IMG/VR virus record: IMGVR_UViG_3300020394_000989
Location: 1 to 50,348 of that record
Source of the DNA: a virus
Length of the DNA: 50,348 bases
Strand: one strand, 5' to 3'
Shown here: positions 3,000 to 16,629 of the stretch, one piece after another
Position numbering within the stretch: the stretch's first letter is position 1
Layout of the letters: each line of letters starts with the position of its first letter
Program-made: the position numbers and the translations under genes
The notes under the pieces: model-generated
What the model saw: only the letters and a program-made list of their open reading frames with translations
The model's database searches: none
Told to the model about the DNA's origin: nothing

Positions 3000-3242
3000 A
3001 TGCAACACAACCCAATGGATAGTGTAGAAAAGCACATCGAGGTTGATAAAAAGATCCTTGAAGATCCTACTACATCTCCTCAACAACGCCGTCATATTGA
3101 AGAAGAACTACATGAACTAGAGGTTTATGTGGAAAATCATAAGGAAGAGATTGCGGCAGGAGATCATCACGATCCTTCTGCTTTAGAATTATTCTGTGAG
3201 GTAGAACCTTCCGCACCTGAGTGTAAAATGTACGATGACTGA
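3000..3242 (+). CDS. cp12: CP12-like Calvin cycle inhibitor
   Basis: CP12 bridges GAPDH and phosphoribulokinase and inactivates both, blocking carbon fixation in the host cytosol. This 80-residue protein carries the diagnostic C-terminal module: Cys66 and Cys75 spaced as in the redox disulfide loop (LFCEVEPSAPECKMYDD), which binds GAPDH. The N-terminal region (TTSPQQRRHIEEELHELE) is a helix as in phage CP12. The N-terminal Cys pair of some host CP12s is absent, as in cyanophage versions I know. In cyanophages CP12 is thought to divert NADPH from the Calvin cycle to nucleotide synthesis; that role is inferred here. Confidence 0.88.
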   Translation: MQHNPMDSVEKHIEVDKKILEDPTTSPQQRRHIEEELHELEVYVENHKEEIAAGDHHDPSALELFCEVEPSAPECKMYDD

Positions 3243-12897: not shown

Positions 12898-12945
12898 AGT
12901 AACTGCTGAGTATCTGGGGAGTATCTACACAGTAACTGCTGAGTA
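12898..12945 (+). repeat. 15-bp direct repeat, two copies 33 bases apart
   Basis: AGTAACTGCTGAGTA occurs at 12898-12912 and 12931-12945. Between them, AGTATCT occurs twice. The 33-base spacing matches the common spacing of the downstream array. No function known. Confidence 0.75.
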
Positions 12946-12959
12946 AATCTTATAGAAAG

Positions 12960-13024
12960 GTGCCGGGGTGTTGTGAGTTTAGCGAGCGTATCATAAGGAG
13001 CGCAGTTTGTCAACACACGGGCAC
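12960..13024. repeat. 14-bp imperfect inverted repeat
   Basis: GTGCCGGGGTGTTG (12960-12973) pairs with CAACACACGGGCAC (13011-13024) at 12 of 14 positions across a 37-base loop. It could form a stem in RNA or a cruciform in DNA. No T-run follows, so it is not a standard terminator. Confidence 0.5.
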
Positions 13025-13098
13025 GCGAAAATCCACAGAAGGACACAAAGATCTCGACGAGTTATGTTATCATAGTGACACAATCTCGACTAGCAATG

Positions 13099-13106
13099 TA
13101 TAAATA
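13099..13106 (+). promoter_or_regulatory. T4-type late promoter motif TATAAATA
   Basis: An exact TATAAATA in the middle of the repeat array. No long ORF follows closely, only a 10-codon frame at 13108, so it may drive the gene at 13218, a small RNA or replication-related transcription. Tentative. Confidence 0.4.
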
Positions 13107-13163
13107 ATGGTTATGAATCTCGACGAGTATCATGTCTAGACGAGACACACATCTCGACTAGAC

Positions 13164-13192
13164 TTGCGCCTCGACGATATATCTGCTACAAT
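13164..13192 (+). promoter_or_regulatory. Sigma-70-like promoter within the array
   Basis: TTGCGC (13164-13169), 17 bases, TACAAT (13187-13192). A degenerate array copy lies between the two boxes and an exact copy lies just downstream at 13201. This is where a repressor would bind. Confidence 0.6.
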
Positions 13193-13217
13193 ACACAAGA
13201 ATCTCGACGAGAGCATT

Positions 13218-13397
13218 ATGTACGACGACTACGATCTCGACTATACAATGTATCACGACAATGCACATGATCTCGACGAGACATATGACATATGGGTGCA
13301 GTCATTTGCACACACACAACTAGATGAAGATCTCGACGAGGAGTATGCACGCGATGCGCAAGATTATGATGCGCTTGCGTATAAACATTATGCATGA
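13218..13397 (+). CDS. Small acidic repeat-encoded protein, 59 aa
   Basis: The ATG at 13218 gives MYDDYDLDYTMYHDNAHDLD; the protein is rich in Asp, Glu and Tyr, with repeated LDY/LDE units. Each LD unit is encoded by a copy of the DNA array (CTC GAC GAG reads Leu-Asp-Glu), so the protein partly results from repeat spread or the repeat is kept for DNA binding. The frame is open upstream to 13164, but the promoter at 13187 favours the later ATG. Strong acidity would suit a DNA-mimic or inhibitor; this is inference. It may not be a real protein. Confidence 0.5.
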   Translation: MYDDYDLDYTMYHDNAHDLDETYDIWVQSFAHTQLDEDLDEEYARDAQDYDALAYKHYA

Positions 13398-13430: not shown

Positions 13431-13586
13431 ATGTATACACTTACTAAGCGCAAAGTACGTGTTATTCTAGACATCGAATGTTACGATGATCTAGACATCG
13501 AATCACTCGATTGGAATGATATCTTACACCTAGAAGGTGATGAGAATGTTGACACTACCATCGTGGATGATGACATCGACTGGTGA
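13431..13586 (+). CDS. Small acidic cyanophage-type protein, 51 aa
   Basis: MYTLTKRKVRVILDIECYDD, then DLDIESLDWNDILHLEGDEN. I associate the RKVRVILDIECYDDLDIE pattern with small proteins found in many T4-like cyanophages. It has its own promoter and a terminator after it. Two CTAGACATCG elements occur in the coding sequence, related to the upstream array. Function unknown. Confidence 0.7.
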   Translation: MYTLTKRKVRVILDIECYDDLDIESLDWNDILHLEGDENVDTTIVDDDIDW

Positions 13587-13613
13587 GTGTGCCGGTTCAA
13601 TAACCTAGACAAG

Positions 13614-13641
13614 ACCCCTTGCGACTTCGTTCGTGAGGGGT
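13614..13641 (+). terminator. Probable intrinsic terminator
   Basis: ACCCCT (13614-13619) pairs with AGGGGT (13636-13641), with partial inner pairing (CGA/TCG). The sequence after it (TATTGTCATTTT) is only moderately T-rich. Confidence 0.6.
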
Positions 13642-13699
13642 TATTGTCATTTTGTGGGTTGAGAATTCTCTTCACAAACTCCCCACCAAGTTATTGACA

Positions 13700-16458: not shown

Positions 16459-16629
16459 ATGCAAAAAAATTCCGCAGAAAATTTTTCAACCATAGAAGTC
16501 GATCCTGTAACTGGTGAGTACGTGGTTATCATACCTGAGTGGGTTATTAGTGAATTCGGGTGGTATGAGGGCACAGGAGTCAATATGGAAGTAGAGAATG
16601 GTTGTATCGTAATAACCGAAGTAGAATGA
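16459..16629 (+). CDS. AbrB/MazE-like small protein, 56 aa
   Basis: The core IEVDPVTGEYVVIIPEWVIS, GWYEGTGVNMEVENGCIVIT has the swapped-hairpin AbrB/MazE pattern: strand, Tyr-x-hydrophobic-Ile-Pro, helix, Trp-x-x-Gly, two strands. Such proteins are DNA-binding regulators or antitoxins. No toxin gene is next to it, so a free-standing regulator is more likely. TTGACT of the next promoter overlaps its stop. The ATG at 16459 is the only sensible start. The fold is inferred from pattern. Confidence 0.6.
   Translation: MQKNSAENFSTIEVDPVTGEYVVIIPEWVISEFGWYEGTGVNMEVENGCIVITEVE

What the first reader, a model, noticed from the sequence alone, without database searches (positions are those of the whole stretch)
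13051..13340. Phased palindromic ATCTCGACGAG array
Eight clear copies (five exact ATCTCGACGAG, three ATCTCGACTAG/T) plus several degenerate copies occur in 290 bases, with spacings of 17 or 32-36 bases (about 60 once). The core CTCG-A-CGAG is an inverted repeat around one base, as in dimer operators. Copies lie on a sigma-70-like promoter (between -35 and -10 and just downstream). It resembles no known phage element I can name. It could be an iteron-like origin, an operator array, or a partition or packaging site.
Basis: partly seen in the sequence, partly recalled or inferred. Interest (0 to 1): 0.78.

Follow-up and report, generated by a model that had tools for sequence, protein, structure and literature searches.

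The report
Conserved operator array in cyanophage promoters
Many large T4-like viruses of ocean and lake cyanobacteria carry a run of short, nearly mirror-image DNA sites laid over the promoter of one small two-gene unit, probably docking sites for an unidentified protein that switches those viral genes, which makes a poorly understood step of cyanophage infection testable.

Summary
The array is real. Seven exact ATCTCGAC(G/T)AG copies and several degenerate ones lie at 13051-13340, with none elsewhere in the 50-kb record; shuffled sequence never gives more than one per 300 bp. It is not peculiar to this contig: the same arrays occur at the same locus in many IMG/VR contigs and in the isolates S-SRM01, P-SSM2 and S-T4. 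They are absent from Bellamy, S-SM2, DSL-LC03, S-SCSM1 and S-PM2.

The array covers the promoter and 5' part of a two-gene unit (ORF1, under strong purifying selection; ORF2, phrog_12516) that ends at a terminator. In 57 of 68 representative loci one copy sits between the -35 and -10 boxes. In 61 of 68 another sits just before the ORF1 start. In 48 of 68 one lies 8-13 bp after a late-promoter-like (N)ATAWATA. Two further tiny-gene families have arrays in front of them.

Half-site statistics, untranscribed copies and no unusual RNA folding favour protein-bound DNA operators. An origin finds no GC-skew support. The binding protein is unknown. A 56-aa AbrB/MazE-like protein (16459-16629) co-occurs, but is very acidic, so it is only a candidate. 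A regulatory array is well supported; its sign and binder are inferred.

The parts
13051..13340 (+). Array of ATCT(C/A)G(A/T)C(G/T)AG sites: 8 clear and about 3 degenerate copies, all in the direction of transcription
13164..13192 (+). Sigma-70-like promoter TTGCGC-N17-TACAAT with a degenerate motif (CTCGACGAT, 13170-13178) filling the 5' side of the spacer; relatives have TTGCAT or TTGACA and TATAAT or TACAAT
13099..13106 (+). Late-promoter-like TATAAATA, followed 10 bp later by a motif copy (13117)
   Evidence: late consensus NATAAATA for cyanomyoviruses from PMC2984593
13201..13211 (+). Motif copy between the -10 box and the ORF1 start codon, a position occupied in 61 of 68 relatives
13218..13397 (+). 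ORF1, 59 aa (MYDDYDLDYT...YARDAQDYDALAYKHYA), no Pfam family and only insignificant PHROGs matches; copies 13234, 13270 and 13330 in frame
   Evidence: purifying selection in the last 20 codons
13431..13586 (+). ORF2, 51 aa (..ILDIECYDDLDIESLDWNDILHLEGDENV..), phrog_12516; also present in relatives without the array
13613..13642 (+). Terminator-like hairpin closing the two-gene unit
12985..13013 (-). Leftward sigma-70-like promoter (reverse complement TTGACA-N17-TACGCT), a pattern also seen in relatives with and without the array
   Evidence: read; pattern found in 45 of 68 loci
16459..16629 (+). 56-aa AbrB/MazE-like protein (phrog_661), a candidate binding protein only; the stretch includes the stop codon

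Best explanation
A multi-copy operator array. A dimeric sequence-specific DNA-binding protein, most likely phage-encoded, binds the imperfect palindrome ATCT(C/A)G(A/T)C(G/T)AG(AT) at many sites over the promoter and 5' part of a small transcription unit (ORF1-ORF2-terminator), and in many relatives over one or two further tiny genes. One site fills the -35/-10 spacer, one lies at the start codon and one just downstream of a late-promoter-like element, so occupancy should block RNA polymerase at the early promoter and probably at the late one; copies inside the coding sequence could act as elongation roadblocks. Shown: array, positions, conservation, coding nature of ORF1, small regulon. Inferred: that a protein binds, that it represses, and which protein it is (the 56-aa AbrB-like protein at 16459-16629 is the best phage candidate, about 0.25).
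For: Clustered far beyond chance and confined to one locus here. In the complete S-SRM01 genome all 11 core copies lie in three arrays within 5.4 kb of 240 kb. Same locus and placement in many IMG/VR contigs and in P-SSM2, S-T4 and AG-345-F15. Of 68 representative unit-A loci, 57 have a core in the sigma-70 spacer (nearly all at -17 or -16 from the -10 box), 61 have one between -10 and the start codon, and 48 have one 8-13 bp after NATAWATA against about 5 by random placement. The -35 TTG is kept, as for a repressible rather than an activator-dependent promoter. Left and right half-site variants combine independently (12 double variants, 8.9 expected), as for a dimer with tolerant half-sites. 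Copies in the spacer and further upstream are not transcribed from this promoter, and the transcript does not fold unusually (z -1.27). Related arrays of half-sites occupy the same place in S-SKS1, L370 and L392. Presence follows phage lineage more than host: S-T4 has it and S-SCSM1 lacks it, both recorded on WH 7803.
Against: No binding, footprint or expression data. The sites are oriented: of 297 upstream sites 256 have the left AT and 73 the right AT, stronger asymmetry than a simple dimer site needs. The arrays before phrog_1653 and the third family show no sigma-70-like promoter within 170 bp, so promoter occlusion does not explain them. The candidate protein has one K/R against eleven D/E in the window (pI about 4); its predicted monomer was of low confidence and matched no AbrB fold; it also occurs in Sf-CH5 and, more distantly, in ACG-2014f and S-PM2, where no array was found. 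10.5-bp phasing failed after thinning.
Confidence: 0.62

Rival explanations
1. The sites act in RNA: short repeated hairpins or sequence tags in the 5' UTR and coding part of the mRNA are bound by a translational regulator such as phage RegA or a host RNA-binding protein.
For: Oriented along transcription; a copy lies 2-4 bp before the ORF1 start codon in most loci and about 6 bp before the start in many phrog_1653 units; those arrays lack a recognisable promoter.
Against: The commonest positions include the -35/-10 spacer and further upstream, outside the transcript of that promoter; half-site changes are not compensatory; folding not unusual; no Rfam match. Upstream copies could still be transcribed from the late-like promoter.
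Confidence: 0.12
2. A replication origin or iteron cluster: an initiator binds the array beside an AT-rich region and a leftward promoter that primes replication.
For: Neighbouring AT-rich block, short tandem repeats and a leftward promoter at the same intergenic locus, also in relatives.
Against: Cumulative GC skew runs without a turn through the locus in S-SRM01, S-SKS1, Bellamy, S-SM2, DSL-LC03 and Sf-CH5; up to three arrays per genome; array absent in relatives that keep the AT-rich block and leftward promoter. T4-like phages can use several origins, so skew is weak evidence.
Confidence: 0.08
3. Stoperator-like roadblocks: the protein mainly stops elongating polymerase, like the oriented 13-bp stoperators of mycobacteriophage L5 (recalled, not tested here), and promoter occlusion is secondary.
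For: Oriented sites, copies inside coding sequence and between genes without a promoter.
Against: Fixed placement in the promoter spacer in 57 of 68 loci argues for promoter control; these phages are not known to be temperate.
Confidence: 0.13
4. Recognition by a host transcription factor, the phage using or decoying a host regulon.
For: No phage-encoded classical transcription factor was found that follows the array.
Against: Of 83 double-motif stretches in 84,980 species genomes, none is titled cyanobacterial; three are contigs encoding the phage ORF1-like protein and most of the rest are high-GC genomes. Only paired sites were searched. Presence differs between phages of one host.
Confidence: 0.1

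Closest known systems
Multi-operator repressor regions of phages, e.g. lambda OL/OR (from general knowledge)
   Same: Several imperfect-palindrome sites with preferred spacings, one or more lying between -35 and -10
   Different: Different sequence; more copies; extends into the coding sequence; lytic T4-like phages; no known repressor; also at genes without a visible promoter
Mycobacteriophage L5 stoperators (from general knowledge)
   Same: Short sites oriented with transcription and repeated between and within small genes
   Different: Here clustered at one to three loci rather than dispersed over the genome; palindromic core; placed in a promoter spacer
T4 middle promoters with MotA boxes (from general knowledge)
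   Same: A phage-specific element upstream of a -10 box
   Different: The MotA box replaces the -35 box, while here TTGCAT or TTGACA is kept at 17 bp; cyanomyoviruses lack motA (PMC2984593)
MazE/AbrB antitoxin-type regulators binding repeated palindromes
   Same: The co-occurring 56-aa protein family weakly matches PF04014 and TIGR01439
   Different: Very acidic, no toxin partner identified, no motif seen at its own gene in the window, binding untested

Membership tests
Phage multi-operator (repressor) array | Several copies of one palindromic site clustered over a promoter, beyond chance | tested here: met
Phage multi-operator (repressor) array | Conserved position relative to core promoter elements in relatives | tested here: met
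   57/68 in the spacer, 61/68 between -10 and ATG
Phage multi-operator (repressor) array | A protein binds the sites and represses | not testable with these tools
   no binding or expression data available
Phage multi-operator (repressor) array | Cognate regulator gene identified | tested here: inconclusive
   AbrB-like gene co-occurs (13/13 array loci with at least 8.3 kb downstream; all of S-SRM01, P-SSM2, S-T4, S-SKS1, G001, G002, G004, G008 and the window) but is acidic and also found without an array; every locus of the neighbour-gene sample carried it, so that sample could not test the link
Iteron-type replication origin | Strand-composition switch at the locus | tested here: not met
   six complete genomes; weak test for T4-like phages
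Iteron-type replication origin | Single conserved site with adjacent AT-rich unwinding region | tested here: not met
   AT-rich block present, but up to three arrays per genome and the block also occurs without an array
Stoperators | Sites oriented with transcription | tested here: met
   left AT 256/297, right AT 73/297 in unit A; not clear in the phrog_1653 unit
Stoperators | Dispersed over the genome and bound by the phage repressor | tested here: not met
   confined to one to three clusters; binding untested
T4 middle (MotA) promoters | Element replaces the -35 box | tested here: not met
   -35 TTG retained at 17-18 bp in nearly all loci
AbrB/MazE DNA-binding family (candidate protein) | Significant match to family profile | tested here: inconclusive
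   11 of 26 members match PF04014 at E up to 1, best 4e-4; the window protein itself does not match it
AbrB/MazE DNA-binding family (candidate protein) | Basic DNA-contacting residues | tested here: not met
   window protein has 1 K/R and 11 D/E

The most novel reading that the evidence does not exclude
A dedicated middle-phase switch of Kyanoviridae: a tiny phage protein, perhaps the acidic AbrB-like one acting with a partner, binds oriented arrays over paired early and late promoters and between tiny genes, acting both as promoter repressor and as elongation roadblock, with operator types (palindrome, ACGAGAT, ACGAGAA) that diverge between lineages.
Probability: 0.18. Interest if true: 0.78.

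Novelty: new variant of a known kind. Interest (0 to 1): 0.6.

Why it matters
Cyanomyoviruses lack alt, modA, modB, motA and asiA, and how their early and middle transcription is controlled was described as unclear (PMC2984593). This is a widespread, precisely placed cis-element at such promoters, present in cultured phages including P-SSM2, S-T4 and S-SRM01, so its protein can be fished out directly. A full-text search of the held library found no paper containing both the core sequence and the word cyanophage, though papers outside that library could exist.

Tried and rejected
Origin by GC skew: no turn at the locus. RNA element: no Rfam match, no unusual fold. Helical phasing: spacings prefer 30-33 and 40-43 bp, but the best-fit period was about 8.6 bp and the 10.5-bp signal lost significance with 23 thinned lineages; multiples of three inside ORF1 come from the reading frame. 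Host genomes: 83 double-motif stretches; three encode ORF1-like proteins and are probably misbinned phage contigs (L158, L175, L194). Identification of the binder by gene co-occurrence: most families returned were unconvincing reading frames or structural genes; of the small proteins, the AbrB-like one was in all nine array genomes with few negatives. Unbiased 2x2 test of that protein against the array through the neighbouring conserved gene: failed as a test, because every sampled locus carried the protein (12 with array, 4 without). The generic promoter scan does not list the early promoter (TTGCGC is a weak -35); it rests on conservation in relatives.

Full report
Observation. The array is present as described. 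Seven exact ATCTCGAC(G/T)AG and one ATCTCGACTAT lie at 13051-13340, all on the + strand, with degenerate copies at 13136, 13170 and 13254. No ATCTCGAC(G/T)AG occurs elsewhere in the 50,348-base IMG/VR record. In 200 Markov shuffles of the window no 300-bp stretch held more than one; seven are observed.

Context. The array covers the promoter and 5' part of a compact unit: sigma-70-like TTGCGC-N17-TACAAT (13164-13192), ORF1 (13218-13397, 59 aa), ORF2 (13431-13586, 51 aa, phrog_12516) and a terminator-like hairpin (13613-13642). A late-promoter-like TATAAATA lies at 13099-13106. A leftward TTGACA-N17-TACGCT lies upstream (12985-13013); the leftward pattern is shared with relatives that have no array (seen). 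The last three clear copies are in frame in ORF1. ORF1 is a real gene: over its last 20 codons in 74 distinct sequences, single-base codon differences are synonymous to non-synonymous 1.96 to 1, against 0.24 expected. The pairs are not independent, so the ratio is descriptive.

Distribution. That sample is selected for exact same-strand pairs, and a few members are unrelated coding sequence (for example L092 and L128). Of the isolates, S-SRM01 has 11 core copies in three arrays within 5.4 kb of a 240-kb genome; P-SSM2 and S-T4 have one array locus of the ATCTCGACTAGAT type (the two places in the S-T4 record have the same internal spacing and are probably a repeated end of the record). S-SKS1 has one or two full sites and eight ACGAGAT half-sites. 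Complete genomes of Bellamy, S-SM2, DSL-LC03 and Sf-CH5 have site counts near the shuffled level and no cluster; exact-pattern counts in S-SCSM1, S-CAM7, ACG-2014f and S-PM2 are zero. In a sample reached through a neighbouring gene, without regard to the array, 12 of 16 loci with at least 4.4 kb upstream carry an array.

Regulon. Array-bearing contigs show arrays in front of three tiny-gene families: ORF1-ORF2, phrog_1653 (KAKNRFANLM) and one without a family (CEWRTQSF). The window has only the first. Neither of the other two shows a sigma-70-like promoter within 170 bp.

Anatomy. Among 68 representative loci, a core lies in the -35/-10 spacer in 57 and between -10 and the start codon in 61; a site lies 8-13 bp after NATAWATA in 48, against a mean of 5.2 by random placement. 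The frequent element is CATATATA; only the window-type TATAAATA fits the published late consensus NATAAATA. In the window the spacer copy is degenerate (CTCGACGAT) and is not counted among the 57. Of 297 upstream sites, the left AT is present in 256 and the right AT in 73; the centre is A in 212 and T in 85; variants of the two halves are independent (12 double, 8.9 expected). This fits a protein dimer on DNA better than a base-paired RNA, but the orientation bias is unexplained.

Binding protein. A 56-aa protein 3.1 kb downstream (16459-16629, phrog_661) was present in every array locus with at least 8.3 kb downstream (13 of 13) and in all nine array genomes compared, and was not found in Bellamy, S-SM2, DSL-LC03 or S-SCSM1. 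Some relatives weakly match the MazE antitoxin and AbrB profiles. Against it: it lies beside conserved genes, so linkage may be plain synteny; it occurs in Sf-CH5, ACG-2014f and S-PM2 without an array; it is highly acidic; its predicted structure is uninformative. It is a lead, not an identification. Other factors, including host proteins, remain possible.

Mechanism. The most likely working is repression by occlusion: a bound site between -35 and -10 and another at the start of the transcript exclude polymerase, with neighbouring sites giving cooperativity. The retained -35 box argues against a MotA-like activator. Sites in the coding sequence and between promoterless genes suggest an added roadblock role. 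All steps after 'conserved sites at fixed promoter positions' are inferred.

Novelty. Operator arrays are a known kind; the sequence, its spread through T4-like cyanophages, its placement on an early and a late-like promoter at once and its extension into ORF1 appear new. No paper in the held library contains both the core sequence and 'cyanophage'; unheld or differently worded reports cannot be excluded.

Noticed in passing
window 12985-13013 (-) and L008-L011, L133, L134, L136: A leftward sigma-70-like promoter (TTGACA-N17-TANNNT) at the same intergenic locus in relatives with and without the array, pointing into an AT-rich stretch with no gene on that strand in the annotated relatives; possibly an untranslated RNA.
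   Followed up: partly
window 12898-12945; L009 about 3140-3240: Short tandem repeats (AGTAACTGCTGAGTA; CTTATAAACCTTCTCTAATA) between the AT-rich block and the leftward promoter, differing in sequence between phages at the same place.
   Followed up: no
L370 5960-6330, L392 2520-2590, L009 3360-3720: At the same locus other arrays replace the palindrome: ACGAGAA, CTACGAGATTT and ACGAGAT half-sites, mostly on the sense strand.
   Followed up: partly
L158, L175, L194: Contigs in metagenome-assembled genomes titled Gammaproteobacteria, Flavobacteriales and Sphingobacteriales encode the cyanophage ORF1-like protein and the array; probably misbinned phage DNA.
   Followed up: yes
L008 3060-3197 (S-SRM01 85649-85786): ORF1 is not annotated in S-SRM01, while the P-SSM2 counterpart is annotated as PSSM2_098 (L394 8879-9034).
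   Followed up: yes
units before phrog_1653, e.g. L059, L080, L091: A conserved hairpin of the type GTGCCACTTCNTCTAGTGGCAC sits between the first two motif copies downstream of the preceding stop codon.
   Followed up: no
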